Positions 34,293 to 64,000 of a DNA stretch of 64,000 nucleotides are shown piece after piece. Numbering within the stretch: the stretch's first letter is position 1; every line of letters starts with the position of its first letter. The notes beneath the pieces are model-generated. The model was not told the origin of the DNA, ran no database searches, and worked only from the letters and a program-made list of their open reading frames with translations. The stretch comes from Pyropia yezoensis (lineage: Eukaryota; Rhodophyta; Bangiophyceae; Bangiales; Bangiaceae), in contig CM020619.1 of assembly GCA_009829735.1 (NCBI GenBank), forward strand, positions 16,931,816 through 16,995,815, in the 5' to 3' direction. The translations under genes were made by a program, and so were the position numbers.

Positions 34293-35996
34293 CTACTCCC
34301 AGCGCGGACGCTGCGCCGCGGGAGCGTCCTCCAGCGCTGCCTCCGCGGCACGACGGGAACCGGAGGAAGGCGGGATGACGTAGTGCGGTGGGCGCGGCGC
34401 TTCCAGGTATGACGCCATTGGAGTAGTACCGGTAGTTGCCGGGCGCTCCCGCTCATCCAGATATGCCTGTCGGCGCCCCAGGAAACCAGTGAAGGTCTCT
34501 GACCACTGCTGGGCCAAGCCATGCCGCGTCAAAGTCTCCAGAAGTTCGCCAACCACCGGGCTGTCCGACATCTGGCCGCTGTCCGCGCAAGCAAACACCC
34601 GGTCGACCACATTGTTCAAGACGCTAGCGTAAGTGCCCAGCACCAGGGAATACCCGACGCCTTCGACTTGCACCGGAAGACGACCCAGCTTGTCTTCAAT
34701 CATGCCAACGTCATACTGGTCGCACGTCGGACCACCTTGGTTCAGGTACCAGTCAGGCACCCGGAAGCGGGTAAGGCGTAGAGTCGGCGCCGGGATCTCG
34801 AACCGCCCCGAGGATGCCACTATCAGACGATCCAAAACAGCCCCGGAAGCCGGAGTCCCCAACTCAAGAGGAGGCACAGGGCCGCCGACGTTTGAAGAAG
34901 GCGCCCGAGGCAGAACGGCCGGAGTAGTCGGCGACCGCACGGCCACGCCAAGACTCGCTGCAGACAAGCGCGGTGCCGGAGGAGCTTGAAGCACCGGCAC
35001 AGACGGAGCAGAACGCAAACGCGCCGGCGACGGTCCAGACGAAGCCACCGGGGCGACAGGTGCAACAGGAGCAAGCGGAGCCGCCGCAGACGCCCGACCG
35101 ACCGCCGCGGCCCATCCCGACTCTTGTACCGGCGGCCCAGTTGGCAGAAGATCGAGAGCGACCGGAGCAGGACAGCTGCCTAGCTGCGGCCACGCCGGAA
35201 GCGGTGTCGCCAGCTGCACATTGGCCGGAGAAGACTGGTAGACCACCTGCACCCAACCGGAGCCATCCCGACGCGGGCTGTTCTGGTCGGCGATCGCGTT
35301 CAAGAAGCTCCGGTCCTGCACCGGCAGCCGACGCCGGAAGTCGATCATCGCCTGGAAGAGCTCCTTGTACTCCTCGTCCTGGCTGCACAGGAAGTCGACC
35401 GTCAACTTGTCAACGATCCAGACCATCAGGAGGTCGGGGAGGAACCAAAGCCGGTTGGACACTAAGACCTCGTGGAGCCAGTGGTTGGCCGCCAAGACCG
35501 TCCTCTCGGAGGTGTACATCATGTACGGGATCGAGTGGAAGAAGCCCTTGATCGACGCCTGGGTCAAGGCATCCAGAAAGTACCATGTGAAGGGGATGCT
35601 GGATGGAGCAAACCCGACCGGGATCTCGATTTCCTGCTGCTGCGGGATGACCTTGGGGTAGTGCGCCGCCCGGTTGGCCTTGTCCAGCTTCCAGAACTCT
35701 TGATGGTTGCAGCTCACGATGAAGTCACGCTGACGCCCGCGCCGCTCGCCCTGCTCCCGCGCCGGCGACAACTTGGAATACTTCCGGGTCAGGAAAGGCG
35801 GCTCCAGAGCGACCATGCTCGGACGGAGATCACAGTTCAAGCTCCCCGACCCCTTGAGCGCCTCGTCCCAGACCTTGAGCGCCTGGTAGACGTACCCTTC
35901 CTCCTCTGGCCACCGGAGAACGGACGCAGACACGCGACGCTCGGTCAAGGGTAGATCCAGCACCAGCGCGAAGGGGAGATCTTCCAGGCGGGCAAC
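34293..35996 (-). pseudogene. Antisense accessory ORF of element A, first copy (N-truncated)
   Basis: Minus-strand frame converging on pol; its stop lies 145 bp from the pol stop. 568 codons are open up to a TAG (35999-35997) that replaces a Trp codon present in the 42.5-44.4 kb copy. No catalytic domain is recognised. It has a helical central region (HYPKVIPQQQEIEIPVGF, LAANHWLHEVLV, SNRLWFLPDLLMVWIVDKL), a Pro/Ala/Ser-rich linker, then a structured segment (VPDWYLNQGGPTCDQYDVGM) and a Ser/Arg-rich C-terminus. This is the only copy in element A with an intact 3' end, since the solo LTR is absent here. Central blocks resemble the antisense ORF of B1/B2. Confidence 0.75.
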
Positions 35997-36017
35997 CTAA
36001 GAGAAACCCGAAAAGCT

Positions 36018-38690
36018 CTGGTTCGGTTTTAACCCGGCAGATGATACCTGGGAACCCTTAAACCGGTTACCCGTCGCGGACTTCTGCGCCTACACACGAC
36101 GGAACGGGATTGAGGGCACTCCAGTGGCCAGAGTCGGCAAGATCCTGGAATCGGACTCGGAGGAGGACCAGGAGGACGGGGCTCATCAACACCCTCGGGA
36201 CGAGCCGAGCTCACCCGCAACGGACGCGGAACAAGAGGAGTGAGAAGAAGGGAACGGGTGTATCAAGGAAAACACGCAATGCAAGGATGGAACTATCAAG
36301 AAAAACAAGCACCCGCTCGAGCAACCCTTCTCTCCGCCTCTTCCCTCCTCGCTTCTCCAAGACTCTCACTCTCCCAGCCTCCAAGTACTACTCCCAGCGC
36401 GGACGCTGCGCCGCGGGAGCGTCCTCCAGCGCTGCCTCCGCGGCACGACGGGAACCGGAGGAAGGCGGGATGACGTAGTGCGGTGCGCGAGGCGCTTACA
36501 GGTATGACGCCATCGGAGTAGTACCGGTAGTTGCCGGGCGCTCCCGCTCATGCAGATATGCGTGTCGGCGCTGTAGCATCCCTGGCCCCGACTTGGCGCC
36601 GACCCGGGACTACAACCAGAGGGCACCAGGTGCCATAACACGCCCGCCGTGTGGTGATGGTTGGCGGCCGTGGCCCGTGCCCGGCACTGGGATGCGGTGG
36701 ACTACGCTATCCACACGTGAGAGAGGGATTTCTGATGGGTTTTTGCATACTTGTGAGGGACTTGATTTGTGAGAATTTGAGTGTGAGATTAGTGAGTGGG
36801 AATAGAATTAGTAGTGATAGTGGCCCCCGACCTGACGAGGTTAGACTCGGGTCGGGGCCACTCGGGGGTATGGGGGGGGGTTACCTGGCCAACGTGCCGA
36901 GGCTCTCCCAGATGCACGTTAAGAGGGACAGCGAGGCGCCCTTGGCCCGCGCCCTCAGGAAAAAGACAACTGCGCGTTTGCTTTCCTCTTCCCCGCGTGC
37001 ACTACCGTGCGTATCTGTCTGCTCTGCGAGCAGGCACGTGAGGCAACAGGCATACCGCTCTCGTAGTTCCCCTTTCTGTGTTACCTGTCCCTTTCCCCCG
37101 AAGGATATTGACACGTGTCTGAGAGGATCGAGTTTTATACCACAGGCGCCCCTGGAAACCAGTGAAGGTCTCTGACCACTGCTGGGCCAAGCCATGCCGC
37201 GTCAAAGTCTCCAGAAGTTCGCCAACCACCGGGCTGTCCGACATCTGGCCGCTGTCCGCGCAAGCAAACACCCGGTCGACCACATTGTTCAAGACGCTAG
37301 CGTAAGTGCCCAGCACCAGGGAATACCCGACGCCTTCGACTTGCACCGGAAGACGACCCAGCTTGTCTTCAATCATGCCAACGTCATACTGGTCGCACGT
37401 CGGACCACCTTGGTTCAGGTACCAGTCAGGCACCCGGAAGCGGGTAAGGCGTAGAGTCGGCGCCGGGATCTCGAACCGCCCCGAGGATGCCACTATCAGA
37501 CGATCCAAAACAGCCCCGGAAGCCGGAGTCCCCAACTCAAGAGGAGGCACAGGGCCGCCGACGTTTGAAGAAGGCGCCCGAGGCAGAACGGCCGGAGTAG
37601 TCGGCGACCGCACGGCCACGCCAAGACTCGCTGCAGACAAGCGCGGTGCCGGAGGAGCTTGAAGCACCGGCACAGACGGAGCAGAACGCAAACGCGCCGG
37701 CGACGGTCCAGACGAAGCCACCGGGGCGACAGGTGCAACAGGAGCAAGCGGAGCCGCCGCAGACGCCCGACCGACCGCCGCGGCCCATCCCGACTCTTGT
37801 ACCGGCGGCCCAGTTGGCAGAAGATCGAGAGCGACCGGAGCAGGACAGCTGCCTAGCTGCGGCCACGCCGGAAGCGGTGTCGCCAGCTGCACATTGGCCG
37901 GAGAAGACTGGTAGACCACCTGCACCCAACCGGAGCCATCCCGACGCGGGCTGTTCTGGTCGGCGATCGCGTTCAAGAAGCTCCGGTCCTGCACCGGCAG
38001 CCGACGCCGGAAGTCGATCATCGCCTGGAAGAGCTCCTTGTACTCCTCGTCCTGGCTGCACAGGAAGTCGACCGTCAACTTGTCAACGATCCAGACCATC
38101 AGGAGGTCGGGGAGGAACCAAAGCCGGTTGGACACTAAGACCTCGTGGAGCCAGTGGTTGGCCGCCAAGACCGTCCTCTCGGAGGTGTACATCATGTACG
38201 GGATCGAGTGGAAGAAGCCCTTGATCGACGCCTGGGTCAAGGCATCCAGAAAGTACCATGTGAAGGGGATGCTGGATGGAGCAAACCCGACCGGGATCTC
38301 GATTTCCTGCTGCTGCGGGATGACCTTGGGGTAGTGCGCCGCCCGGTTGGCCTTGTCCAGCTTCCAGAACTCTTGATGGTTGCAGCTCACGATGAAGTCA
38401 CGCTGACGCCCGCGCCGCTCGCCCTGCTCCCGCGCCGGCGACAACTTGGAATACTTCCGGGTCAGGAAAGGCGGCTCCAGAGCGACCATGCTCGGACGGA
38501 GATCACAGTTCAAGCTCCCCGACCCCTTGAGCGCCTCGTCCCAGACCTTGAGCGCCTGGTAGACGTACCCTTCCTCCTCTGGCCACCGGAGAACGGACGC
38601 AGACACGCGACGCTCGGTCCAAGATAGATCCAGCACCAGCGCGAAGGGGAGATCTTCCAGGCGGGCAACCTAAGAGAAACCCGAAAAGCT
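36018..38690. repeat. Tandem unit 1 (2673 bp) of element A
   Basis: Begins inside the pol chromodomain (CTGGTTCGGTTTTAACCCGG) and ends inside the antisense ORF. Contents: chromodomain remnant to the pol stop (to 36243), inter-ORF spacer, C-terminal antisense-ORF fragment (36388-36566), solo LTR (36572-37144), and the rest of the antisense ORF (37145-38669, minus). The junction to the preceding copy at 36018 shows CTGG microhomology between the two original sites. Its TAG near the unit end and its GTCCAAGATAG variant are shared with unit 2. Confidence 0.93.
36572..37144 (+). repeat. Solo LTR 1 nested in the antisense ORF
   Basis: 573 bp, same family as the terminal LTRs, flanked by GGCGC at 36567-36571 and 37145-37149. 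The uninterrupted site in the first copy reads GTCGGCGCCCCAGG. It breaks the antisense ORF 60-70 codons before its stop. Confidence 0.93.
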
Positions 38691-41363
38691 CTGGTTCGGT
38701 TTTAACCCGGCAGATGATACCTGGGAACCCTTAAACCGGTTACCCGTCGCGGACTTCTGCGCCTACACACGACGGAACGGGATTGAGGGCACTCCAGTGG
38801 CCAGAGTCGGCAAGATCCTGGAATCGGACTCGGAGGAGGACCAGGAGGACGGGGCTCATCAACACCCTCGGGACGAGCCGAGCTCACCCGCAACGGACGC
38901 GGAACAAGAGGAGTGAGAAGAAGGGAACGGGTGTATCAAGGAAAACACGCAATGCAAGGATGGAACTATCAAGAAAAACAAGCACCCGCTCGAGCAACCC
39001 TTCTCTCCGCCTCTTCCCTCCTCGCTTCTCCAAGACTCTCACTCTCCCAGCCTCCAAGTACTACTCCCAGCGCGGACGCTGCGCCGCGGGAGCGTCCTCC
39101 AGCGCTGCCTCCGCGGCACGACGGGAACCGGAGGAAGGCGGGATGACGTAGTGCGGTGCGCGAGGCGCTTACAGGTATGACGCCATCGGAGTAGTACCGG
39201 TAGTTGCCGGGCGCTCCCGCTCATGCAGATATGCGTGTCGGCGCTGTAGCATCCCTGGCCCCGACTTGGCGCCGACCCGGGACTACAACCAGAGGGCACC
39301 AGGTGCCATAACACGCCCGCCGTGTGGTGATGGTTGGCGGCCGTGGCCCGTGCCCGGCACTGGGATGCGGTGGACTACGCTATCCACACGTGAGAGAGGG
39401 ATTTCTGATGGGTTTTTGCATACTTGTGAGGGACTTGATTTGTGAGAATTTGAGTGTGAGATTAGTGAGTGGGAATAGAATTAGTAGTGATAGTGGCCCC
39501 CGACCTGACGAGGTTAGACTCGGGTCGGGGCCACTCGGGGGTATGGGGGGGGGTTACCTGGCCAACGTGCCGAGGCTCTCCCAGATGCACGTTAAGAGGG
39601 ACAGCGAGGCGCCCTTGGCCCGCGCCCTCAGGAAAAAGACAACTGCGCGTTTGCTTTCCTCTTCCCCGCGTGCACTACCGTGCGTATCTGTCTGCTCTGC
39701 GAGCAGGCACGTGAGGCAACAGGCATACCGCTCTCGTAGTTCCCCTTTCTGTGTTACCTGTCCCTTTCCCCCGAAGGATATTGACACGTGTCTGAGAGGA
39801 TCGAGTTTTATACCACAGGCGCCCCTGGAAACCAGTGAAGGTCTCTGACCACTGCTGGGCCAAGCCATGCCGCGTCAAAGTCTCCAGAAGTTCGCCAACC
39901 ACCGGGCTGTCCGACATCTGGCCGCTGTCCGCGCAAGCAAACACCCGGTCGACCACATTGTTCAAGACGCTAGCGTAAGTGCCCAGCACCAGGGAATACC
40001 CGACGCCTTCGACTTGCACCGGAAGACGACCCAGCTTGTCTTCAATCATGCCAACGTCATACTGGTCGCACGTCGGACCACCTTGGTTCAGGTACCAGTC
40101 AGGCACCCGGAAGCGGGTAAGGCGTAGAGTCGGCGCCGGGATCTCGAACCGCCCCGAGGATGCCACTATCAGACGATCCAAAACAGCCCCGGAAGCCGGA
40201 GTCCCCAACTCAAGAGGAGGCACAGGGCCGCCGACGTTTGAAGAAGGCGCCCGAGGCAGAACGGCCGGAGTAGTCGGCGACCGCACGGCCACGCCAAGAC
40301 TCGCTGCAGACAAGCGCGGTGCCGGAGGAGCTTGAAGCACCGGCACAGACGGAGCAGAACGCAAACGCGCCGGCGACGGTCCAGACGAAGCCACCGGGGC
40401 GACAGGTGCAACAGGAGCAAGCGGAGCCGCCGCAGACGCCCGACCGACCGCCGCGGCCCATCCCGACTCTTGTACCGGCGGCCCAGTTGGCAGAAGATCG
40501 AGAGCGACCGGAGCAGGACAGCTGCCTAGCTGCGGCCACGCCGGAAGCGGTGTCGCCAGCTGCACATTGGCCGGAGAAGACTGGTAGACCACCTGCACCC
40601 AACCGGAGCCATCCCGACGCGGGCTGTTCTGGTCGGCGATCGCGTTCAAGAAGCTCCGGTCCTGCACCGGCAGCCGACGCCGGAAGTCGATCATCGCCTG
40701 GAAGAGCTCCTTGTACTCCTCGTCCTGGCTGCACAGGAAGTCGACCGTCAACTTGTCAACGATCCAGACCATCAGGAGGTCGGGGAGGAACCAAAGCCGG
40801 TTGGACACTAAGACCTCGTGGAGCCAGTGGTTGGCCGCCAAGACCGTCCTCTCGGAGGTGTACATCATGTACGGGATCGAGTGGAAGAAGCCCTTGATCG
40901 ACGCCTGGGTCAAGGCATCCAGAAAGTACCATGTGAAGGGGATGCTGGATGGAGCAAACCCGACCGGGATCTCGATTTCCTGCTGCTGCGGGATGACCTT
41001 GGGGTAGTGCGCCGCCCGGTTGGCCTTGTCCAGCTTCCAGAACTCTTGATGGTTGCAGCTCACGATGAAGTCACGCTGACGCCCGCGCCGCTCGCCCTGC
41101 TCCCGCGCCGGCGACAACTTGGAATACTTCCGGGTCAGGAAAGGCGGCTCCAGAGCGACCATGCTCGGACGGAGATCACAGTTCAAGCTCCCCGACCCCT
41201 TGAGCGCCTCGTCCCAGACCTTGAGCGCCTGGTAGACGTACCCTTCCTCCTCTGGCCACCGGAGAACGGACGCAGACACGCGACGCTCGGTCCAAGATAG
41301 ATCCAGCACCAGCGCGAAGGGGAGATCTTCCAGGCGGGCAACCTAAGAGAAACCCGAAAAGCT
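38691..41363. repeat. Tandem unit 2 (2673 bp) of element A
   Basis: Same contents as unit 1 and apparently identical to it by eye: pol remnant, antisense-ORF C-terminal fragment (39061-39239), solo LTR 39245-39817, and antisense-ORF body (39818-41342, minus). Confidence 0.93.
39245..39817 (+). repeat. Solo LTR 2 (copy of solo LTR 1)
   Basis: Identical to the LTR at 36572 by eye and with the same GGCGC flanks. It therefore arose by duplication of the unit, not by a new insertion. Confidence 0.93.
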
Positions 41364-44035
41364 CTGGTTCGGTTTTAACCCGGCAGATGATACCTGGGAA
41401 CCCTTAAACCGGTTACCCGTCGCGGACTTCTGCGCCTACACACGACGGAACGGGATTGAGGGCACTCCAGTGGCCAGAGTCGGCAAGATCCTGGAATCGG
41501 ACTCGGAGGAGGACCAGGAGCACGGGGCTCATCAACACCCTCGGGACGAGCCGAGCTCACCCGCAACGGACGCGGAACAAGAGGAGTGAGAAGAAGGGAA
41601 CGGGTGTATCAAGGAAAACACGCAATGCAAGGATGGAACTATCAAGAAAAACAAGCACCCGCTCGAGCAACCCTTCTCTCCGCCTCTTCCCTCCTCGCTT
41701 CTCCAAGACTCTCACTCTCCCAGCCTCCAAGTACTACTCCCAGCGCGGACGCTGCGCCGCGGGAGCGTCCTCCAGCGCTGCCTCCGCGGCACGACGGGAA
41801 CCGGAGGAAGGCGGGATGACGTAGTGCGGTGCGCGAGGCGCTTACAGGTATGACGCCATCGGAGTAGTACCGGTAGTTGCCGGGCGCTCCCGCTCATGCA
41901 GATATGCGTGTCGGCGCTGTAGCATCCCTGGCCCCGACTTGGCGCCGACCCGGGACTACAACCAGAGGGCACCAGGTGCCATAACACGCCCGCCGTGTGG
42001 TGATGGTTGGCGGCCGTGGCCCGTGCCCGGCACTGGGATGCGGTGGACTACGCTATCCACACGTGAGAGAGGGATTTCTGATGGGTTTTTGCATACTTGT
42101 GAGGGACTTGATTTGTGAGAATTTGAGTGTGAGATTAGTGAGTGGGAATAGAATTAGTAGTGATAGTGGCCCCCGACCTGACGAGGTTAGACTCGGGTCG
42201 GGGCCACTCGGGGGTATGGGGGGGGGTTACCTGGCCAACGTGCCGAGGCTCTCCCAGATGCACGTTAAGAGGGACAGCGAGGCGCCCTTGGCCCGCGCCC
42301 TCAGGAAAAAGACAACTGCGCGTTTGCTTTCCTCTTCCCCGCGTGCACTACCGTGCGTATCTGTCTGCTCTGCGAGCAGGCACGTGAGGCAACAGGCATA
42401 CCGCTCTCGTAGTTCCCCTTTCTGTGTTACCTGTCCCTTTCCCCCGAAGGATATTGACACGTGTCTGAGAGGATCGAGTTTTATACCACAGGCGCCCCTG
42501 GAAACCAGTGAAGGTCTCTGACCACTGCTGGGCCAAGCCATGCCGCGTCAAAGTCTCCAGAAGTTCGCCAACCACCGGGCTGTCCGACATCTGGCCGCTG
42601 TCCGCGCAAGCAAACACCCGGTCGACCACATTGTTCAAGACGCTAGCGTAAGTGCCCAGCACCAGGGAATACCCGACGCCTTCGACTTGCACCGGAAGAC
42701 GACCCAGCTTGTCTTCAATCATGCCAACGTCATACTGGTCGCACGTCGGACCACCTTGGTTCAGGTACCAGTCAGGCACCCGGAAGCGGGTAAGGCGTAG
42801 AGTCGGCGCCGGGATCTCGAACCGCCCCGAGGATGCCACTATCAGACGATCCAAAACAGCCCCGGAAGCCGGAGTCCCCAACTCAAGAGGAGGCACAGGG
42901 CCGCCGACGTTTGAAGAAGGCGCCCGAGGCAGAACGGCCGGAGTAGTCGGCGACCGCACGGCCACGCCAAGACTCGCTGCAGACAAGCGCGGTGCCGGAG
43001 GAGCTTGAAGCACCGGCACAGACGGAGCAGAACGCAAACGCGCCGGCGACGGTCCAGACGAAGCCACCGGGGCGACAGGTGCAACAGGAGCAAGCGGAGC
43101 CGCCGCAGACGCCCGACCGACCGCCGCGGCCCATCCCGACTCTTGTACCGGCGGCCCAGTTGGCAGAAGATCGAGAGCGACCGGAGCAGGACAGCTGCCT
43201 AGCTGCGGCCACGCCGGAAGCGGTGTCGCCAGCTGCACATTGGCCGGAGAAGACTGGTAGACCACCTGCACCCAACCGGAGCCATCCCGACGCGGGCTGT
43301 TCTGGTCGGCGATCGCGTTCAAGAAGCTCCGGTCCTGCACCGGCAGCCGACGCCGGAAGTCGATCATCGCCTGGAAGAGCTCCTTGTACTCCTCGTCCTG
43401 GCTGCACAGGAAGTCGACCGTCAACTTGTCAACGATCCAGACCATCAGGAGGTCGGGGAGGAACCAAAGCCGGTTGGACACTAAGACCTCGTGGAGCCAG
43501 TGGTTGGCCGCCAAGACCGTCCTCTCGGAGGTGTACATCATGTACGGGATCGAGTGGAAGAAGCCCTTGATCGACGCCTGGGTCAAGGCATCCAGAAAGT
43601 ACCATGTGAAGGGGATGCTGGATGGAGCAAACCCGACCGGGATCTCGATTTCCTGCTGCTGCGGGATGACCTTGGGGTAGTGCGCCGCCCGGTTGGCCTT
43701 GTCCAGCTTCCAGAACTCTTGATGGTTGCAGCTCACGATGAAGTCACGCTGACGCCCGCGCCGCTCGCCCTGCTCCCGCGCCGGCGACAACTTGGAATAC
43801 TTCCGGGTCAGGAAAGGCGGCTCCAGAGCGACCATGCTCGGACGGAGATCACAGTTCAAGCTCCCCGACCCCTTGAGCGCCTCGTCCCAGACCTTGAGCG
43901 CCTGGTAGACGTACCCTTCCTCCTCTGGCCACCGGAGAACGGACGCAGACACGCGACGCTCGGTCAAGGGTAGATCCAGCACCAGCGCGAAGGGGAGATC
44001 TTCCAGGCGGGCAACCCAAGAGGAACCTGAAAAGC
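41364..44035. repeat. Tandem unit 3 of element A, continuing into unique 3' sequence
   Basis: Starts like units 1-2 but carries some variants of the first copy (GAGCACGGG at 41517; GTCAAGGGTAG near 43965). At its right end it runs without a break into the N-terminal part of the antisense ORF. It contains solo LTR 41918-42490. The mixed variants suggest recombination or conversion between units. Confidence 0.9.
41918..42490 (+). repeat. Solo LTR 3 (copy of solo LTR 1)
   Basis: 573 bp with GGCGC flanks, identical by eye to the two preceding solo LTRs. Confidence 0.93.
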
Positions 44036-44429
44036 TCTGGGAGCGGTCTTGTGCCAGGCGCATCTGGTCCGCCGCATGAAGACGAGTCTTGTCCATCTCA
44101 GTAAAGACTCCGCGCTGGAGTTCCTTGCGCCAGATGGCCAGGCAATCCTGCTGGCACTGGGCCGGACTGGCGTTGCCGACCACCGTAGTGTTACGCCGGC
44201 CCGCCAGAGGGTTCTGCCCAAGAAGCATCTCCGGGAGTCCCACCGGGGGGGTCTCGACCGGGTGCAACGCAGAAGCCGGGGGATCCCGATCCGTCCCCGC
44301 CGTGGCGACCGACACCGGCACCGACACCCGAGGAACCGGAGGCAGGAGAGGGGCGCGACCACCCGAGTTCTCCTCCGCAACACTCGCCGCCGGAACCACG
44401 GGCCCAGCTTGGATCTCGGAACTGGACAT
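42491..44429 (-). pseudogene. Antisense accessory ORF of element A, copy with intact N-terminus
   Basis: Minus-strand ATG at 44429 (MSSSEIQAGPVVPAAS). The frame is open for ~646 codons until the solo LTR at 42490, and reads on into LTR sequence to a stop at 42348. The ~125 N-terminal residues not present in units 0-2 are Pro/Val-rich, then helical (AQCQQDCLAIWRKELQRGVF). Here the Trp codon that is TAG in the other copies is intact (SSWVARLEDL). The start lies 183 bp from the 3' LTR, so an antisense promoter in or near that LTR would be needed. Family comparison suggests an original protein of about 700 residues. No function is recognised. Confidence 0.75.
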
Positions 44430-44598
44430 GACGTCCAGAATCCGGGGGAACGAGAGGGCCAAGGTGAAGGAGAAGGGGGGGGACAGAATCGGAGCAGGTG
44501 ACCGTGACCGGGGTGAAGACGCTCGACCTCGGCACCGGTGTGGACGCGCTCGAGGCTGTGCACGGTGGCACCTGGATCGGCCCGAGGACGTGCCGGAC

Positions 44599-44612
44599 TA
44601 GGGAGGGAGCTA
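44599..44612 (+). promoter_or_regulatory. Polypurine tract of element A
   Basis: Purine-rich GGGAGGGAGC followed by TA immediately before the 3' LTR at 44613; the expected primer site for plus-strand DNA synthesis. Confidence 0.6.
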
Positions 44613-46210: not shown

Positions 46211-46212
46211 TT

Positions 46213-46230
46213 TGGTGGAGCAGCAGGGGA
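46213..46230 (+). promoter_or_regulatory. Primer-binding site of B1
   Basis: TGGTGGAGCAGCAGGGGA two bases after the LTR; the same 18-mer as in element A. Confidence 0.7.
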
Positions 46231-46329
46231 CAGAGGTAAACTTTACCTCCGCGTGCACCCGGGTGTAGGGGGCCCTCTGTCTCAGAGGAACGGTGGACTT
46301 GGACCGTGTCTTACGAAAAGTTAGCCAAC

Positions 46330-52345: not shown

Positions 52346-52456
52346 TTGGCAGCTGCCTTTGTTGTGAGAGTGTGAGGGTTAGGGCTGTAGTTAAAAGCCA
52401 CTCTGCGTACCACTTCGACTTGAAGCACTCTCTTGGCACTGTTGTTCGGCCTTCCC

Positions 52457-55400
52457 TCACGTTGAGGGAGGGCTGTTAGGGTCTATCTCATTCCGGGCAC
52501 AGTACGCCCGGACCTTCTCAGCGGGAAGGTCCTCCACATACTCCCACGTATCATCCTTAGCTTTGTAGCCAAACCAACGCACCCTCAACATGAGGCGGTC
52601 AGTGTCTTCATCCCATCCGTGGTCGATGAACTTATCGAATACGTACTCCTGCGGGCCCTGTTTGGCCGCAGGCAGTGAGGGGAGGCGCCACGATTCCAAC
52701 GCACGCGCCCAAGCTGGGTCGCCTGCAGGCGGTGGTGCAACTTTGACCACGTCCTGTCCGTTCACTGTGCGGACCCCATCGTCACTTTCGATGGTGAAGC
52801 GCCGCCCATCAGTACGAAGGACCTGGTACGGTCCCTTCGTCTGGAATACCAGCTTACCCCCAGTTGGGGTGTGCGAGTGTACCAGCACCCAGTCACCCTG
52901 CTCGGGGACATGTTTAGCATTGCGCACCTTTTTGTCACAGGTACGCTTGTAGCGCTTTTGTGCTTTGTCCATCTCAGCCCTGACTTTAGGGATGAGGTTT
53001 TCAAGCTTAGCGGCGAACTCCGCCTTACTCTCAGTAGGAGTAGGCGTACTGCCACCATCCTCCCTAGTTGAGAGCGACCGCCGCACGGCAATAGACCGCA
53101 CGCGACGGGGGGTCACAAAAGCGAGGGGTACTTCCCCTGTAGATGAGTGAACCTGCGAATTGTAGGCAGTAGTAAGGATAGAAATGTATTGGTCCCACGT
53201 CTTCACGTGCTCACTCACATCGTGGCGCAGCTGCTTAACAATAGTTTTGTTGAAGCGCTCCACCTGCCCATTAGTTTGTGGGTGGTAGGGGGTGGCATAG
53301 TTTGCCTTAACCCCCAACATATCCAGCACTCCCTGAAACAGTACAGACGCAAATTGCGGTCCATTGTCCGATAGTGTACTATCTGGGATGCCATACGCGG
53401 CAACCCAGTGATCTAGGAAGGCTGACACGACCGACATGGCCGTGATCTCTGCCACAGGGATCGCTCGCGTAAGTTTCGTGAAGCGGTCACAGATGACCAG
53501 GAGGTACTGGTTGCCCTTTTCGGTCACGGGCAGTGGCCCAAGGATGTCCATCGCCAACGCGGCGAAGGGCTCCTTGGCCGGGAACAATAGCATAGCCGTA
53601 GTAGGCCGCCGTTCCATCAGACGATTCTGTGCACAACTTGTGCAGGCAGCCACCAAACTGTAGATGTCCACCACCATGGACGGCCAGTAGTACCTGGTCC
53701 TCAGGGTCTGGTACAGTTTACTAGACCCCAGGTGTCCACCCGTGGGAGCGTTGTGCTCCCTCTCAAGGATACTGTCCTTGAGGGATGCGGGAAGGACAAG
53801 TTGTTCGGTCCCCTGGAATACCCCCCTCCTTATGAGGAGGCCATCGTCTCCCAGAAAGAACCGTGTCTCTACCACTGTATCCGCTATATCCCTCTGCGAC
53901 TTGCAGAAGGGATCCTCGGCCTGGGCCTTCACCACCTCGTCCAGGGACAGGGGCAAGTACTTCTTGTTCCCTGGCGCCTCGGGGTTTAACGCCTGACCCG
54001 AGCGCGTGACTACCCCCACGATGGGGATGTCCTCATCGACTGGGTAAGTGTCCAGCCCCTCGGTAGGTACCCGAGAGAGGCCGTCGGCAAGGGCATGTTG
54101 CCTGCCAGGTCGGTATTCAATGTCAAAGTTGAAGGGTGCCAGTCGCACCCTCCACCTGTTGAGACGAGTGTTCGTACAGTCCGTCTTAAAGATGAACTGC
54201 AACGCGCGGTGGTCACAGCGGATGAGTAACTTCTCACCCTCTAGGTAGTGACGAAGAGACGTCACCGCGCACACCACTGCGAGTCCTTCCAGCTCGGTGA
54301 CTCCATAGTTCTTCTCCGCCGAGTTCAGCCCCTTGCTGAAGTATCCTTCCAGCAAGTACTCCTTGTCCGGCTGCTGCTGAAGCAACACACAACCAAGTTG
54401 GTTGTAGCTAGCGTCTACATCCAAGATGTAGTGGCCTCCCAACCTGGGAATAGCCAGGATAGGGGGCTTCAGCAGAAGATCCCTAAGAGTCTCAAAGGAT
54501 TCCTGCTCCACCCGACTTGGGGGAGGCAGGTTCTTCGGTAGCGTTGAGCTCACTAGCTCATTCAACGGCTTCGCCACCTTGGCGAAGCCCTTGGTGAAAC
54601 GTCGGTACACGTTACGCATCCCGAGGAAGCTCCTCATCTGGGTCTGGGTCCGGGGCTACTGAGCCTTACCGATGGCCCTCAAGTTCTTCTCGTTAACACT
54701 GAGACGCCCCGGATGGACAACATGTCCCAAGTACTCCACCTCTTGAGTAAAGAGGTGGCACTTACTCGCCTTCAGTGACACACCGGCGTCAGCAAGTAGC
54801 TTGGACACCAGGCCAAGATGGCCAATGTGCTCCTCCGGACTCCGGGAGAACACAATGATATCGTCTAGGTACACAAGACAGATCTGCCACCGTACTCCGG
54901 CCAGAATCATGTCCATAGCGCGCTGGAAAGTTGCCGGCGCGTTACACAGACCAAACGGTAGGCGCTTGCACTGGTAGGTACCACAGTGACAGGTAAAGGT
55001 AGTTTTATGCCTGTCCTCCGGGGCAATGGGAATTTACCAGTACCCCGCGTTACAGTCCAGGGTAGAGAACACGTTTGCCTCCCCCAGTGAGACCAGACAG
55101 TTGTCCATCCTAGGTAGGGGATAACTGTCCTTCACCGTGCTCTCGTTGAGCTTACGGTAGTCGATACAAAACCGGGGGGTCCCATCAACTTTGGGGACGA
55201 TAACCACCGGACTCGCCCACTCGGCGTTGCTGGCCTCGATCACATCGAGGGCCTCCATGCGAGCAACTTGCTCCTTAACGAGGGCCCTTGAACGAGGTCC
55301 TCCCCTCTACGGTTGTTGGCGTATAGGGGGTGCACCGGGCTTCAACTCGATCCGGTGTTGGGTGGCTCTCATGAGTTCTAATTGACCATCCCACAACTTG

Positions 55401-56440
55401 TGATATTGGTCCAAGAGGCGTTCAACTTGAACCCTCAACCTGGGGGGGACACCCTCCATGTTCACGTGGGGCCGAGGAGAGGCGGCCGACTTGGCTTGGT
55501 GCTTCTCCTTTCCGGACTTCGGGTCGCTACTTGCGCCCGCGTTGAGGGTGACCGCTACTACCGGTCCCTCGTGTTGGTCGATATAGCCGAACTTGGCTCC
55601 CGACTTGAAGTACTTGGGCGTCGGGCTCAGGTTCATCACCTGGATCCTCCACGGGACTACGGCTTTGGAGTCCATCGTGCCAAGGGCAACATGCACTTGG
55701 TGCTTACGAGCAGGACGGGGGCTAGGGTGCACCAACCCGTTCCCCGTAAAATCAGTTACAACGTCAACGTGCGCCACCGAGTTGGGGGGCAACGTGACTT
55801 TACGGGCTAAACGCAGGGTAGCAGTACACCCTTTCCTCACCGAACAAACAGGCTTCGACTGTGAGACTGTCACAGGAGCCACAGACTTTCCCTTACCAAG
55901 GATGGGGATAGTCTCCCCATTCATCAACTTGACCCAATACTCCGGGCCACAAATCAAAGGCACTTGTGTTACAACATAAGGGGTACCCAGAAGCAGGGGT
56001 ACCGATATATTCTCAACTACGCCATAGGTCACGTCGACCTCATGTGCTCCCAACCTAGTTGGTAGGGTCACGGCAAGAACAATGGGAAGTACCCCACCAT
56101 TGATGTCAATCATATGGTCAGCTTTGGACCTCCAGCGTTGGAGCTTCACCTCCTTTGGTAATAGGGACTTGCGTATCAAGGAGGCTCCTGAACCGGTATC
56201 GAGTACGATACGGGTACAGCATGCACGGCCGGGGGCAAGTTGCACCCGTCCAGCCACCTGGAAGTTCTCACCCGTCAGCACCGCGAGGACCCGACGTGGG
56301 TTTACGTTCTTGGGGAGTCCTACCCGAGGTGGGCGGACTCCCTTAGGTCACCGCAGCATCCGGCACGGTTGGTTCGTCCTCCTGGCCCACTTGGCCGAGG
56401 CTGCTGTTGTGAGCTTCGGACGACCAGCCCCAACGGTCAT
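52457..56440 (-). pseudogene. pol: Protease-RT-RNaseH-integrase-chromodomain of B2
   Basis: A single frame from the ATG at 56440 (ATGA overlap with gag) to 52457, with stops at 56350-56348 (TGA), 55309-55307 (TAG), 55036-55034 (TAA) and 54658-54656 (TAG). The B1 counterpart has sense codons at all four. Domains: VLDTGSGASLIRKS (protease); FCIDYRKLNES, LPFGLCNAPATFQRAMD and CLVYLDDIIVF (RT); LDVDASYNQLGCVL, GVTELEGLAVV and RCDHRALQFI (RNase H); HHCC finger, AMDILGPL, LSDNGPQF and NGQVERFNKT (integrase); and a chromodomain near the C-terminus (EYVFDKFIDHGWDEDTD, LRVRWFGYKAKDDTWEY). Every catalytic motif is visible, so decay is by nonsense codons rather than loss of domains. Confidence 0.93.
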
Positions 56441-58384
56441 TCGTTTCCCGCCGACTTGGCGTCCGAATCTGAGGGCGGGGAGGAAGACGACGAGTCCGAG
56501 GACGACGTGTCCGCCCCCTCCGCCGAGGGTGTGGCGACCGCAACGACCGGTCGAGACCCACCCTCGCGGCGTGAACGTACTTCGTTCGTAGCCGACTTTT
56601 TACTCGCATTCCTAACAAGTTGTTCGATGCGTTTACTCAACTTGGGGCAATCGTATGCCCAGTGACCATCGGAGTTGCAGCTCCAACACCGATGGTCCGT
56701 TCCGGGAGGGGTCTTCGCCAACTGGGGAAGACGAAGGGATACCCTGGGAAGTTCCCACGGCAGCTACCACCCTCTCCTTGCCGATTCGGCGTGCCTCTCT
56801 CAACTCTCTGGCCTGGCGCGCCTCCTCCCGTTCCTTGGCCAGCTCGGCCTGACGCTCCTGGCGTTGTTCCTCCCGCAACTTGCGGTAGGCCTCACCTCTG
56901 CGGTAGGCGAGCCTGGCCAACTCGGCTAGGGTCGCCCGGGCAGTATTATGCTTCCGGGTTTCCATACAGACTGACCAGAGGAGTCCCTCCACAAACCGAC
57001 TCTTCACCACAGCTTGTGGATGAAGAAACCCACAAAGATTGTTGAGCTTACGAACCCGCTCCGCAAAGGACAACTCGTCCTCAGTATCTTCCTGATGAGC
57101 TTGCGTAAACACCTCGACTTGAGAAGCCAAAGCTGCTTCATCCACCATGGCTCTCAACAACCAGTTGACCAGCTCCAAGTAGGACGTCACCTCACCAGCG
57201 CCTCCACTTGAGGAACTGGGCATGACGGACATAAGTTCTGTCCGTAGGTCGCCCTTCGTAAACTCCTGTAGCAAGTAAAAAGCCATGCCTTCACTTATGG
57301 CATTGTCGTCACAGGCTTTTGTGAAACGACGTAGGAACTCAAAGACACGGAGGGGGGGAGTTCCGTCCCACTCCGCTTTGTGCCCAAAAGAATGAAGGGC
57401 ATTCTTCTTGGCACGGCCCATGGCTCGGGCCTGGTCAGGACCATACGCCACCGACTTGTTGTGGAGGGCGTAGGTCTCACAGTCAAAGATCCTCTGGTAG
57501 ACCGGGTTGGCTACCTGGATCTTGGGCGGCACCTCACGTTGAGGGAACAGCCGCTGTGGCACTGGGGTGAGTTGACCTGCAGTGCCTGTCGTCTGCCGCG
57601 GCGAGCTTGGTGTAGCCGCCGGCGTTTCCGGGGGGAACTCCCCCGTGAAGGGCGTACGCCCCACCGAGTATGGTGTGGCTCCCTCGTTGGGAGTCACAGG
57701 TGTCGCCCCCAGTTCGGGGCGACCAGAGACAGGCGTAAGGGGGGATTCCCCCTGCGCCTGCGGGCTCGAAAGCCCCAATCCGGCTTGGACAATAAGGCCA
57801 TCTGGCAAGCTCGCCACAATCTGATTCAAAATAGTATTCGTCATCGTGACCACCAGGTCCGGCAAAGTCTGCCGCAACACATTGGTCGCCTCCCGACGGA
57901 CAGTTTCCGCGAGGAGTGAATTGACGACTCCAGTTGAGTCTCGGTCCGCCTCCGGGAGTCCACCTGAGGGGTAACCACGTTCCTCAGGGGTCTCAACCGG
58001 GGGCATGGGCGCGAGCCCATCGCCGACCAACGGAGGTCCGCCGTCCTCCGAAAGCCTAGTTGGCGACGGCTCCAAGCCAAAGTTGGCTCCAACCCGAGTG
58101 GAACCCGCGGGGACAGTCCTCTCACCTTGGGACGTTCCCGTTGAGTATACCACACGGTGGCCAGACTTCGGCCCACCCACATCAGAAGTGTCACCCGAGT
58201 GAACTCCCGACTGAGTCGGGGTGGCCTGTTGCCCGGCCGTACTTCCAGTCCTGCTGGCTTCAGGGACCTCCAGTCCCTCTGCGACCCCAGGTAAACCCAC
58301 CTGTGTCTCACCAGTATTCAAAGGCACTGAAGTACGTGCGTCACCCGTGTACTCCCCGGACGACGGGGGTTCCGAGCTAGCCAT
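56437..58384 (-). pseudogene. gag: Gag of B2, frameshifted before the zinc knuckle
   Basis: ATG 58384 (MASSEPPSSGEYTG). The frame runs through the Pro/Thr-rich region, capsid-like domain and charged coiled coil. A one-base insertion relative to B1 at about 56717-56724 then moves the CCHC knuckle (CWSCNSDGHWAYDC) and SAGNE C-terminus to another frame, ending at 56437. The B1 nonsense codon is absent here (Gln in KIQVANPVYQ). The two copies thus carry different lesions. Confidence 0.9.
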
Positions 58385-58483
58385 GTTGGCTGACGATCCG
58401 TATGACACGGTCCAAGTCCACCGTTCCTCTGAGACAGAGGGCCCCCTACACCCGGGTGCACGCGGAGGTAAAGTTTACCTCTG

Positions 58484-58501
58484 TCCCCTGCTGCTCCACC
58501 A
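58484..58501 (-). promoter_or_regulatory. Primer-binding site of B2
   Basis: The same TGGTGGAGCAGCAGGGGA 18-mer, minus strand, two bases from the 5' LTR. Confidence 0.7.
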
Positions 58502-58503
58502 AA

Positions 58504-58971
58504 TGTGGCAAAAACCACTAGCACACACGCACCCAAGTTGGGGCGGTGTGCTAGGGCTGCCTCCCGTGTCGGGGGAACCGGAAGAAGTGCAAGTCGCACA
58601 CACTCTGTCCCTGTTGTGGGGCAAACCCCGCACGGACAAACAAGAGGATGGTGTGTGGTCCAACAGTTTCTTGGTCGGGACGGGGACGCAGGGCCAAGCC
58701 CCGCTGTCCCTCCCCTTATCCCCCCAGGGTCCACTCAGAATCTCGCCACTCAGAATCTCCCACCCCAGCACCTGCCCACCGGGCCACACGAAAATTCAAG
58801 ACGATAAATGCAGAAAACCCTCAAATCCAAGTTGGATTTACTACTAAGCTAACTATCCCAAACTTAGGGAATATGGACCCAAATGCAGGGGGAGGAACGG
58901 ATCAGGCTAGTGGCCTGCCGCCCCTTGCATGGCACGTGTTGCCCCCCTACCTGGGGGTCAATACTGCCACA
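58504..58971 (-). repeat. 5' LTR of B2
   Basis: 468 bp; about three differences by eye from the copy at 49596-50063. Followed by the ATCCC target duplication and the resumed B1 pol. Confidence 0.95.
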
Positions 58972-58976
58972 ATCCC

Positions 58977-61638
58977 CTACCTAGGATTGACAACTGTCTG
59001 GTCTCACTGGGGGAGGCAAACGTGTTCTCTACCCTAGACTGTAAAGCGGGGTATTGGCACGTTCCCATTTCCCCGGACGACAGGCATAAAACTACCTTTA
59101 CCTTTCACTGTGGTACCTTCCAGTGCAAACGACTACCGTTTGGACTGTGCAACGCGCGGGCAACTTTCCAGCGCGCCATGGACATGATTCTGGCCGGAGT
59201 ACGGTGGCAGATCTGTCTTGTGTACCTAGACGATATCATTGTGTTCTCCCGGAGTCCGGAGGAGCACATTGGCCATCTTGGCCAGGTGTTCAAGCTACAT
59301 GCCGACGCCGGGGTGTCACTGAAGGCGAGTAAGTGCCACCTCTTTACTCAAGAGGTGGAATACTTGGGACATGTTGTCCGTCCGGGGCGCCTCAGTGTCA
59401 ACGAGAGAAACTTGAGAGCCATCGGTCAGGCTCGGTACCCCCGGACGCAGACCCAGATGAGGGGCTTCCTCGGGATGTGTAACGTGTACCGACGTTTCAC
59501 CAAGGGCTTCGCCAAGGTGGCGAAGCCGTTGAATGAGCTAGTGAGCTCAACGCTACCGAAGAACCTGCCTCCCCCAAGTCGGGTGGAGCAGGAATCCTTT
59601 GAGACTCTTAGGGATCTTCTGCTGAAGCCCCCTATCCTGGCTATTCCCAGGTTGGGAGGCCACTACATCTTGGATGTAGACGCTAGCTACGACCAACTTG
59701 GTTGTGTGTTGCTTCAGCAGCAGCCGGACAAGGAGTACTTGCTGGAAGGATACTTCAGCAAGGGGCTGAACTCGGCGGAGAAGAACTATGGAGTCACCGA
59801 GCTGGAAGGACTCGCAGTGGTGTGCGCGGTGACGTCTCTTCGTCACTACCTAGAAGGTGAGAAGTTACTCATCCGCTGTGACCACCGCGCGTTGCAGTTC
59901 ATCGTTAAGACGGATTGCACGAACACACGCCTCAACAGGTGGAGGGTGCGACTAGCACCCTTCAACTTTGATATTGAGTACCGTCCCGGCAGGCAACATG
60001 CCCTAGCCGACGGCCTTTCTTGGGTATCTACCGAGGGGCTGGAAACTAACTCAGTCGATGATGACATCCCCATCGTGGGGGTAGTCACGCGCTCGTGTCA
60101 GGCGTTGGACCCTGAGGCGCCAGGGAACAAGAAGTACTTGCCCCTGTCCCTGGACGAGGTGGTGAAGGCCCAGGCCGAGGATCCCTTCTGCAAGTCGCAG
60201 AGGGGTCCGCTAGATACGGTGGCGGAGACACGGTTCTTCATCGGAGACGATGGCCTCCTCTTGAGGAGGGGGGCAATTCAGGGGACTGAACAACATGTCG
60301 TTTCCGCATCCCTCAAGGACAGCATCCTTGAGAGGGAGCATAGCACCCCCACAGGTGGACACCTGGGGTCTAGTGAAACTATACCAGACCCTGAGGACCA
60401 GGTACTACTGGCCGTCCATGGTGGTGGACATCTTCAGCTGGGTGGCTGCCTGCACAAGTTGCGCGCAGAACCGTTTGATGGAACGGAGGCCTACTACGGC
60501 TATGTTGCTGTTCCCGGCCAAGGGGCCCTTTGCCGCGTTGGCAATGGACATCCTTGGGCCCCTGCCATTGATCGAGGAGGGCAACCAGTACCTCCTGGTC
60601 ATCTGCGATCGCTTCACGAAACTTACGCGAGCGATCCCTCTGGCAGAGATCACGGCCATGTCGGTCGTTTCAGCCTTCCTAGATCACTGGGTTGCCGCGT
60701 ATGGCATCCCGGACAGTACACTGCCGGACAGTGGACCGCAATTTGCGTCCGTTCTGTTTCAGGGAGTGCTGGATATGTTGGGGGTTCAAGCAAACTATGC
60801 CACCCCCTACCACCCACAAACTAATGGGCAGGTGGAGCACTTCAAGAAAGCTTTTGTTCGACAGCTGCGGCACAATGTGAGTGAGCACGTGAAAACGTGA
60901 CACCAATACATTTCTATTCTTACGACCGCATACAGCTCGCAGGTTCACTCATCTACCGGGGAAGTACCCCCCGCTTTTGTGACCCCCCGTCGTGTGCGGT
61001 CTATTGCCGTACGGCGGCCGCTCCCAACTAGGGAGGCCATTGGCAGTACCCCTTCTCCCACTGATAGTAAGGCGGAGTTCGCTGCTAGGCTCGAAAAACT
61101 CATCCCTCAAGTCAGGGCTGAGATGGACAAAGCGCAGAAGCGCTATAAGCGTACCTTTGACAAGAAGGTGCGCAACGCCAAGCACGTCCCCGAGCAGGGT
61201 GACTGGGTGCTGGCTCACTCACATACCCCAACTGGGGGTAAGTTGGTGTTCCAGACGAAGGGGCCATACCGGTTCCTTCGTAGCGATGGGAGACGGTTTA
61301 CCATCGAAAGTGACGATGGGGTCCGCCCAGTACGCGGACAGGACGTGGTAAAACTTGCACCACCTCCTGCAGGCGACCCGGCTTGGGCGCGTGCGCTGAA
61401 ATCGTGGCGCCGGCATTCGCTACCTGCGGCCAAACAGGGCCCGCAGGAGTACGTGTTCGATACGTTCATCGACCACGGGTGGGATGAGGACACTAACCGC
61501 CTCATGTTGAGGGTGCGTTGGTTCGGCTACAAGGCTAAGGATGATACATGGGAATACGTGGAGGACCTTCCCGCTGAGAAGGTCCGGGCATACAGCGCCC
61601 GAAATGATATCGACCCTAACTGCCCTCCCTCAATGTGA
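58977..61638 (+). pseudogene. pol: RT to chromodomain of B1 (3' part of split pol)
   Basis: Continues the frame of 48273-49595 (LPRIDNCLVSLGEANVFSTLDC). RT catalytic CLVYLDDIIVF, RNase H (LDVDASYDQLGC, RCDHRALQFI) and a Cys-containing linker are in frame 1. At about 60370-60382 an extra base relative to B2 shifts the frame before the HHCC finger. Integrase motifs (AMDILGPL, LPDSGPQF, NGQVEHF) follow in the new frame. TGA at 60898-60900 replaces the Trp codon of WDQY. The frame then stays open through the basic domain and chromodomain (YVFDTFIDHGWDEDTN, LRVRWFGYKAKDDTWEY) to 61638. The integrase second-Asp region reads DSG instead of DNG. Confidence 0.9.
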
Positions 61639-61751: not shown

Positions 61752-63640
61752 CTAGGAACGCATGCTAGACTCCCCAACACCATGGCCGTCGCCCTCACTT
61801 GGAGGCGAGCGGCGAGACCCACGCCGATAACGTTCCCCACCCGTCAGCGGGGGTGGCAGCTCCAAGTCGGAAGCGTCGCGCCCCTTACGGTCGCGCAAGT
61901 GGCGCCGACCGCGGCTACTATTCGGCTTGGTCTTGCGCGCAAGTTGACGACGCAGACGCCGGACCGACTCCGTCTCAGACGGGGTAGAGGACTCCGAGAC
62001 GGAATAAGACAACTCGTCTTCCGACACGGAGGGAGAGCGCCGCGAGTGACGGCGACGACGGCGAGGAGGCGAGCATGCCCGGCTTGCCCGACGCTTGCCG
62101 CGCCCATGTGGGGCCGGCTGGGGCACAATCGACCCAATACGAGCCCACTCGGTCGTCATGAGCCCCGCTACCGACTCGCAACTTGCGGTTCCCACAACAG
62201 TACGAACGCGCTCCTCAAGTTGAGGAGTCTCGGAAACTTGAAGGGTTGCAGCGGACGAGGCCAACCAAGAAATGGTGCGCACCAACGTGGTGATCATCAT
62301 CTCGGAGGTCAAGGGCGTGGCCGGCAATACCAACTTGGGATAGACCGTAAGGAGGGTGGCCCCCAAGTTGGGGGACACCGGAGTAGACGACTCAACGGCA
62401 AGGCCTATCGGGATGTCCCCGTGCGGCTGGAATGGTACAGGAGGAAGCGGAGGGGCTCGCCGAGTAGGCGGAGCCCGAGAGAAACTGCGACCCCTACTCG
62501 GGGCCCCCGCAGTTGGTTGAGTCAAGTAGCCATCGTGGGAGGTCACGGCCACCACGATTGTCTTGTCCGGGGGAGGCGCAGTGTGGCGTTTCACCCCGGG
62601 CCAGACGGGTAGTCCCCGATGCCCAGCCCCTCCTGGAGTACCACACGGCCGTCGTGAAGTTTACGACTGACTCAGACGAACTGGCGAAGTGTGCCACCGT
62701 CCTTGGGCCCGCGGGAGGATCGGCGCAACTTGTGATCGATGCTCTCCCACTCGATGAGCTTGTGGAGGCGCAGCATCTCCTCACGTAGAGTGAGCTGTCC
62801 CGAGCAGCACCACTCAGCAATTAGCTGAGGGGTGAGCTGCTCGAAAGCTTGGATAAGCCGGGGGGATAGATGCCAAAACATCCCCCGCCGCTGAACACAA
62901 GACACGCAGGTCGACATGACCTCGAGGAGCCACTGGGTTGCCAACATGGCGAACACCAGGAGGTCCGGGCTAGCCGTGAGCATGAGGGAGCCGACGTGGT
63001 CGAACAACCGTGGTAGTACCGTCGGAAACCCGTGGGGGACCTCAACTTGAGGCCACCACTCGGGCTTCTTCGGATAGTACTGCTCCGTACTGGCAGCAGA
63101 CTGTTGAGGAAACTCAAGTTGAGCCGAGGTCACCAAGTAGGGACCTCGCCGGTAGTCCTTCACCATCGGCACATCAAAGTGATGAGTGTGCGGATCGACG
63201 TCGCGAAGGTACGGGGGGCGAGTTCCCACAGCGTCCCAAGTGAAGGTTGGCACGTCGTCAGCGCCCAAGATAGTACCCCCACGGTCCACCATGGCCTTAG
63301 CCCGCTGGACGTCCTCGACCTCGTCCTCATCCAGGAAGGCAAACTGGTCCGTCCTGAAGTCGGGAGGAAACCCGACCCCACGGGGGAACTTCTCCCGTAG
63401 GCGGTCCCATACGCGACTCATCGCTGTGCCGAGTCGGCCACAGCGGAGAACCGTCAACCCCTCCTCATACAGAGGCCAAGCGGGGTAAAACCACCGCCCC
63501 AAGGCCTCCCGTGGTGCAACGCGGCCCCCCTCCGGGGGAGATCCCGCCGCCAACCCAAAGCCGGGCGACGCGGGCGTCCCATCCCCCGAAACGACCGCGG
63601 AGCCCCCGCCGGAAGTCCCGGCGGGCGCTGTGTGAGGAAC
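61752..63640 (-). pseudogene. Antisense accessory ORF of B1
   Basis: The minus-strand counterpart of the 50402-52345 ORF, ending 113 bp from the pol stop. Similarity begins at about 63640 (APAGTSGGGSA) and continues through REALGRWFYPAWPLYEEG, YLVTSAQLEFPQQ, YYPKKPEWWPQVEVPHGF, and ATQWLLEVMS. TGA at 62674-62672 replaces Trp, and a one-base loss near 62600 shifts the frame. The linker and RS-like tail (RRRRRHSRRSPSVSEDELSYS) then follow to the stop at 61752. Upstream of 63640 the frame stays open to 63865 but the sequence no longer resembles B2, so the N-terminus is replaced or highly diverged. Confidence 0.75.
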
Positions 63641-64000
63641 CACCCACACTTGGGCAGCCCTCAACGTACTCGTGATGGTGTCAGCGACCCGTGCCAGCCA
63701 AAAGGGCGACAGGGTGCGGGGAAGAGGATGGAGGTGGTGACGGTGGTGGGTCTGGGGAAGAGGACGGCGCGACGTCGGTGGTGATCGAGAGGGTTCAAAG
63801 GGTGAAGGTCGTCTTTGGTCTGTGTCTGTGGTTGCCCTTCCGGTCTCCCCCGGTGGCGCCGACACTCACGCACTATATACTCGCGTCGGGGCACCCGAGG
63901 TGCCCCAAAGCATGCGTTTCCCCGTCGCTCCACCGGTAGGCACAAAACGGCCCAAAAACAAAGCATGGCTCTCAGAACAAAGCATGGGCGGGCGTGCGCA
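63641..64000. other. Right edge: unassigned sequence with TATA-like box and hairpin
   Basis: No similarity to the 338 bp between the B2 antisense ORF and its LTR was recognised. It contains TATATA at 63874-63879 (GTATATAGTG on the minus strand), a perfect 8-bp stem GGGGCACC-CGA-GGTGCCCC at 63888-63906, and two AACAAAGCATGG motifs near the end. It is unclear whether this is B1 3' sequence or host DNA. Confidence 0.4.

What the first reader, a model, noticed from the sequence alone, without database searches (positions are those of the whole stretch)
34293..63865. A conserved antisense accessory ORF family shared by two distinct chromodomain retrotransposon families
Element A (34293-35996 and 42491-44429, minus), B2 (50402-52345, plus) and B1 (61752-63640, minus) all carry a ~650-700-codon ORF between pol and the 3' LTR, on the strand opposite to pol and converging on it with only 111-145 bp between stop codons. 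A and B families have different LTRs and diverged pol. Even so, the antisense products share a pattern: an (I/L)V-S-x-Q-x-EF-like block, then YPK, a gap, EVP-GF / EIPVGF, a gap, A-x-x-WL-x-EV(M/L), then a long helical segment and a Pro-rich linker. B copies add an RS-rich tail. Additional ORFs, some antisense, are known in certain plant Tat-lineage gypsy elements. A homologous one kept across two chromovirus families here has no function I recognise. Convergent dsRNA, a trans-acting packaging/nuclear factor or a silencing suppressor are possible roles.
Basis: partly seen in the sequence, partly recalled or inferred. Interest (0 to 1): 0.88.

Follow-up and report, generated by a model that had tools for sequence, protein, structure and literature searches.

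The report
Backward gene shared by nori retrotransposons
Several related families of jumping genes in the edible red seaweed nori carry, on the strand opposite to their copying machinery, the same fast-changing but selectively kept protein gene, which matches no known protein family and probably helps or regulates the jumping genes.

Summary
The window lies in Pyropia yezoensis (contig sizes match PMC7423979). Elements A, B1 and B2 carry an ORF between pol and the 3' LTR, antisense to pol, stop codons 111-145 bp apart. A-B similarity is real: BLASTP 4e-7, 0 of 500 shuffles, HHalign 1e-4. Three more Gypsy families of this genome (C, D, E) carry relatives, antisense wherever I could pair them with pol. 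Five of ten family pairs stand directly; B is the hub and C-D the strongest (2e-18). The gene is coding and selected: dN/dS 0.25 (A), 0.16-0.22 (B), 0.19 (C). Public relatives bear one organism name, Pyropia vietnamensis. No Pfam, NCBIfam or PDB-sequence family matches; not TRP28. No copy in this window is whole: A is a tandem array with the ORF split between copies, B2 has a premature stop, B1 a frameshift. Antisense accessory ORFs are known in plant Tat/Retand elements and fungal Boty, so this is a new variant of a known kind: a new protein family, in red algal Gypsy elements with chromodomain-like pol ends. Likeliest role, inferred only: a nuclear accessory regulator of the element. Transcripts and fold were not tested.

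The parts
27518..45185 (+). Element A, whole insertion, flanked by TSD CAGCA (27513-27517 and 45186-45190)
27518..28090 (+). A 5' LTR; primer-binding site from 28093
28126..30060 (+). A gag frame (zinc knuckle below cut-off)
30033..31091 (+). A protease frame (RVP 20.6 bits, cut-off 20.7)
31016..33331 (+). A pol, first frame: RT, RNase H, integrase; ends at an in-frame stop
33332..34147 (+). A pol, remaining frame with a weak chromodomain match
34293..35996 (-). Antisense ORF copy 1: C-terminus present, N-terminus cut
34472..44040 (+). Array with a 2,673-bp unit (ORF part 1550 bp, pol end 554 bp, LTR 573 bp); units 99.7-99.8% alike
37002..38669 (-). Antisense ORF copy 2, cut at both ends
39675..41342 (-). 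Antisense ORF copy 3, cut at both ends
42348..44429 (-). Antisense ORF copy 4: N-terminus present (ATG at 44429), C-terminus replaced by LTR sequence
44613..45185 (+). A 3' LTR
49596..58971 (-). Element B2, nested in B1, TSD ATCCC (49591-49595 and 58972-58976)
50402..52345 (+). B2 antisense ORF; in-frame stop at 51923-51925, RS-rich tail beyond it
52457..54655 (-). B2 pol frame (RNase H, integrase, weak chromodomain) converging on the ORF
45895..49595 (+). B1, 5' half: partial LTR, gag, start of RT
58977..61638 (+). B1, pol part after the nested B2
61752..63640 (-). B1 antisense ORF in two frames (61752-62660 and 62672 onward)

Best explanation
A protein-coding accessory gene of a red algal Gypsy lineage, present in at least five families and kept by purifying selection. 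It lies between pol and the 3' LTR, is read from the opposite strand and converges on pol. The product has a conserved N-terminal domain of about 150-370 residues and a Pro/Arg-rich linker, with arginine-serine-rich stretches in B, C and D. Shown: homology, antisense placement, coding constraint, many open copies. Inferred: an antisense transcript begins in or beside the 3' LTR; the protein enters the nucleus and regulates its own element (transcription, RNA processing or export, or nuclear entry), in trans for broken copies; overlapping 3' ends may in addition pair with the genomic RNA. The confidence given is for the nuclear-regulator role; that it is a selected coding gene I put above 0.95.
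For: Homology. Coding constraint: A 0.254 in frame for 15 intact copies, other frames 1.1-1.5 except the mirror frame 0.32; pol end of the same loci 0.139; B 0.155 and 0.215, C 0.194. Placement: 29 of 29 fetched A loci; C/D 19 of 27 RT places, 0 on the same strand; E 18 of 50, the rest untested. RS-rich stretches: up to 52% (B), 78% (C), 42% (D) R+S in 50 residues. Precedent for a nuclear antisense product with its own promoter: Grande (PMC7264820).
Against: No RNA, localisation or binding data. A and E have no RS-rich stretch (at most 26-28%), so that feature cannot carry a role common to all. Four of ten family pairs are not above shuffles (A-C, A-D, A-E, C-E). Eight of 27 C/D RT places have no listed ORF. 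One D pair gave dN/dS 0.78 on very few changes, one B pair 0.36. No known domain supports a nuclear role.
Confidence: 0.4

Rival explanations
1. Silencing suppressor or other counter-defence factor: the fast-changing protein blocks a host pathway triggered by convergent transcription.
For: The ORF changes faster than pol (C-D 27% against 54% identity); convergent stop codons lie close together, so overlapping transcripts are likely.
Against: Overall dN/dS is low; no site-wise test for positive selection was run; no domain match.
Confidence: 0.15
2. Self-limiting copy-number control: the antisense product represses its own family in trans.
For: Antisense products that restrict retroelements exist (Ty1 antisense RNA, PMC12786077 passages).
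Against: Conservation in the open copies of abundant families does not suggest strong repression; not tested.
Confidence: 0.15
3. Structural or particle-associated protein, acting with gag or integrase.
For: Long conserved domain plus basic stretches; extra genes between pol and the 3' LTR in sense orientation are often env-like (PMC7264820).
Against: No profile similarity to A or B gag or to A protease, whereas gag A-gag B gives 4e-19; an antisense gene would need its own mRNA.
Confidence: 0.15
4. The antisense RNA, not the protein, is what matters; the ORF is incidental.
For: Convergent layout with 41-480 bp between stop codons in the families measured.
Against: In-frame dN/dS 0.16-0.25 against 1.1-1.5 in most other frames; protein similarity persists between families whose DNA has diverged.
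Confidence: 0.08
5. Chance long ORF in GC-rich DNA with biased composition.
For: The window holds many long spurious frames where GC is 70-85%; linkers are Pro/Ala-rich.
Against: GC is about 60-65% here; other frames of the same DNA hold 7-19 stops per copy; shuffles keep composition; masked BLASTP still links the families.
Confidence: 0.02

Closest known systems
Antisense aORF-3R of plant Tat-lineage Gypsy elements (Retand, Grande, RIRE2)
   Same: Long ORF between pol and 3' LTR, antisense to gag-pol, in most copies, function unknown; tandem repeats in the same interval are common in Retand (PMC7264820 two of three parts, PMC11963269 passages and discussion)
   Different: No TRP28 (PF04195) or other Pfam match; host is a red alga; pol ends in a chromodomain-like stretch, while Retand is described as a non-chromovirus lineage
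Boty of Botrytis cinerea
   Different: Protein not compared; sequence not at hand
REM1 of Chlamydomonas
   Same: Algal Ty3/Gypsy chromovirus with a part in reverse frame (PMC2774666 passage); that an inverse ORF is regulatory is recalled, the paper is not held
   Different: In REM1 the passage describes a truncated integrase in reverse frame; here integrase is in the sense pol frame
HBZ of HTLV-1
   Same: Antisense nuclear regulatory gene near the 3' LTR; a model for how it may work (PMC11963269 passages)
   Different: No sequence relation claimed or tested

Membership tests
Antisense aORF (aORF-3R) of LTR retrotransposons | ORF between pol and 3' LTR on the opposite strand | tested here: met
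   E partly
Antisense aORF (aORF-3R) of LTR retrotransposons | present in most copies with conservation like other element genes | tested here: met
   A, B, C: low dN/dS; presence in 29 of 29 fetched A loci, which were brought in by the ORF itself, and in 19 of 27 C/D RT places
Retand / TRP28 antisense family | Transposase 28 domain (PF04195) | tested here: not met
   no Pfam match of that name at E up to 3 among 19 members or at E up to 1 among 6
Grande gene23 / RIRE2 / Boty antisense proteins | homology of the protein | not tested
   their sequences were not at hand
Chromovirus (Gypsy with chromodomain) | chromodomain at the pol C-terminus | tested here: inconclusive
   over cut-off in D only; sub-threshold in A, B, C, E
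Chromovirus (Gypsy with chromodomain) | RT placed among known chromoviruses | not tested
   no reference RT set was used; only in-genome trees
One homologous protein family A-E | significant similarity linking all members | tested here: met
   A-B, B-C, B-D, B-E, C-D linked; A-C, A-D, A-E, C-E only through B
One homologous protein family A-E | common fold | not tested
   structure prediction not available

The most novel reading that the evidence does not exclude
The antisense gene is an ancestral, obligate third gene of a red algal Gypsy lineage: an ambisense retroelement whose antisense-encoded protein, of no known family, is needed for replication and works in trans. It would be a retrotransposon counterpart of antisense retroviral regulators such as HBZ, and its conservation across five families with diverged pol would make the open question of what antisense aORFs do testable on one alignment.
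Probability: 0.3. Interest if true: 0.78.

Novelty: new variant of a known kind. Interest (0 to 1): 0.56.

Why it matters
Antisense ORFs of retrotransposons have been described family by family, with origin and function open (PMC7264820, PMC11963269). Here one such protein can be followed across at least five families of one genome and into other Pyropia, with constraint measured in three families. That points to a kept function of the protein, not of antisense RNA alone, gives conserved residues to test, and extends such genes to red algae. In nori nearly half of the genome is repeats, with LTR elements predominant (PMC7423979 passage), and the relatives in P. vietnamensis stand in the database as hypothetical proteins, so annotation may take this gene for a host gene.

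Tried and rejected
Rejected: chance ORFs in GC-rich DNA; a captured gag or protease; TRP28 or another Pfam, NCBIfam or PDB-sequence relative (best PDB match E 0.67, best Pfam match E 0.026 in one member, taken as chance). One scan of IMG/VR with P0004 found nothing. A C-terminal helical domain common to all five families looked plausible by eye and was not supported (D-P0004 only; A-E 0.014). An early HHalign run was wrong because I passed a bad option (global mode); the local run replaces it. E first looked like a sense ORF of its neighbour; the neighbour is a cut-off D copy, and E's own pol end lies on the other strand. The first protein search gave 1 hit; profiles gave 5 and 15, each scoring only about 8000 candidates.

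Full report
Host and setting. The window is G000:C2:16931816-16995815 of a 107.5-Mb assembly. Its three large contigs, 43.59, 34.33 and 29.39 Mb, match scaffolds S3, S2 and S1 (43.6, 34.3, 29.4 Mbp) of the Pyropia yezoensis genome (PMC7423979, passages seen). Relatives named Pyropia vietnamensis agree. The host is therefore a red alga of the Bangiales.

Anatomy of element A. A runs from 27518 to 45185 with TSD CAGCA on both sides. Order: LTR, primer site, gag, protease, pol, then an array. The array repeats 2,673 bp: 1,550 bp of the antisense ORF, 554 bp of the pol end and a 573-bp LTR; units are 99.7-99.8% alike, the outer LTRs 97.6%. One TSD pair flanks the whole, so the array arose within one insertion or was inserted as such. 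The ORF is cut at its N-terminus in the first three copies and at its C-terminus in the last three. In 29 of 29 other A loci fetched (L010-L038, the best-scoring of 60 listed, brought in by the ORF itself) the order is plain pol, ORF, LTR.

Anatomy of B. B2 (49596-58971, minus strand, TSD ATCCC) runs from LTR to LTR inside the RT of B1, whose parts are 45895-49595 and 58977 to beyond the ORF. The B2 ORF starts at 50402 and has a premature stop at 51923-51925; B1's is in two frames. A and B share the primer-binding site.

Are the A and B products homologous? BLASTP 4e-7; 9e-4 for the B1 piece; about 1.3e-4 with low-complexity masking; 0 of 500 shuffles; HHalign 1.1e-4. Yes, weakly but consistently, over about 130-170 residues.

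Other families. I took seven RT places from the list and read 7 kb downstream, then six more stretches. Family C (L056, L063, L064; 942-952 codons) and D (L061, L062; 628 codons) carry a long antisense ORF whose stop lies about 155 bp (C) or 41 bp (D) from the pol stop (coordinates). L058 holds a cut-off D copy (98% identical pol) followed by another element, E, whose ORF (909-codon open frame) faces, about 480 bp away on the other strand, a pol end with a sub-threshold chromodomain match. C-D: 27% over 366 aa, 1.3e-18; B-E 3.7e-9; B-D 9.6e-8; B-C 5.7e-4 (better direction of each). Shuffles reaching the score, of 500: A-B, B-C, B-D, B-E, C-D 0; D-E 2; A-D 91; C-E 134; A-E 275; A-C 331. HHalign: C-D 2e-18, B-D 1.2e-5, B-E 1.8e-5, A-B 1.1e-4, B-C 4e-4, the other five not significant. 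B is the hub.

Placement. For E, 18 of 50 ORF places have the E pol end 460-490 bp away on the opposite strand; only 150 of 1,085 pol-end candidates were scored, so the other 32 are untested (compared by eye). Loci of another chromodomain lineage give no profile hit in 12 of 12, but only L053, L054, L055 and L059 reach past pol and L054 is disturbed by a B insertion, so this control is modest. That lineage's pol is about 28-32% identical to A-D.

Selection. Fifteen intact A copies: dN/dS 0.254 in frame; 100-codon windows 0.09 to 0.50, lowest at codons 200-300. Other frames: 1.34 and 1.47 on the same strand, 1.11, 0.32 and 1.53 on the opposite; the 0.32 frame is the mirror frame. Pol end of the same loci: 0.139. 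B: 0.155 among 8 main copies, 0.356 for one pair of the other subfamily, 0.215 between; 4 of the 14 fetched B loci gave no whole ORF and were left out. C 0.194. D 0.782 for two near-identical copies, uninformative. The 15 A copies were chosen for being intact; by my reading, 18 of 29 loci are open to the usual stop. On the capped lists, 48 of 60 A places and 46 of 50 E places show no stop in the match.

Relatives elsewhere. Profile searches found 5 and 15 proteins. By best BLASTP match to the five families, P0001 and P0020 are A-like, the other public ones D-like. One P. vietnamensis protein stands for 74 member sequences. In the own genome, a P. vietnamensis query lists 71 places. No accepted match in Pfam, NCBIfam or PDB sequences.

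Trees. C and D are sisters in the ORF tree and in the pol tree. A, B and E group in the ORF tree, with a warning about long branches; in the pol tree B joins C-D at 86/89 and A lies outside. Common descent with pol is the simplest reading; exchange between families is not excluded. The ORF changes faster than pol.

How it may work. Shown: a coding gene under selection in antisense position. Inferred: an antisense promoter in the 3' LTR or the leader (start codon 183 bp from the LTR in A, 338 bp in B2, from coordinates); a nuclear protein in the families with RS-rich stretches (B, C, D); regulation of the element. Precedents: Grande's nuclear antisense product with its own promoter and Retand's TRP28, predicted to bind DNA (PMC7264820, parts 1 and 2 of 3; PMC11963269, passages and discussion). 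Overlap of the convergent 3' ends would make dsRNA, which may be tolerated, used or countered.

Novelty. Antisense aORFs are known in plants and in a fungus. Ten full-text searches, covering open-licence papers only, listed no report of one in red algae; I opened only some of the papers listed. PMC3350952 (passage) reported no retrotransposon chromodomains in the Porphyra yezoensis data of 2012; here they occur. The REM1 paper is not held, so the nearest algal precedent rests on a passage in PMC2774666 and on recall.

Noticed in passing
L056:1-3420 (family C pol): Pfam Dam (PF05869, N6-adenine methyltransferase) at residues 991-1060, E 5.4e-7, 29.9 bits against a cut-off of 28.1, behind the chromodomain-like stretch. 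DAM-encoding Gypsy elements in Rhodophyta are on record (PMC6338049 passage).
   Followed up: partly
window 34472-44040: A 2,673-bp array inside one retrotransposon insertion, with internal LTRs joined to ORF and pol-end pieces, units 99.7-99.8% alike: a recent tandem amplification.
   Followed up: yes
C1:30710417, C1:8629408, C2:6117750, C1:15159124 of G000: Places 27-30% like the C product, E 3e-7 to 3e-6, not on the capped lists of A, B, D or E places: perhaps a sixth family.
   Followed up: no
window 22686-24658: Inverted repeat of about 606 bp, 98.7% alike, upstream of element A.
   Followed up: no
window 1-15000: GC of 70-85% over much of this stretch, with many overlapping long frames on both strands.
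   Followed up: no
L058:6315-6794: Between the E ORF and the pol end lie short, AT-richer repeated motifs (by eye).
   Followed up: no
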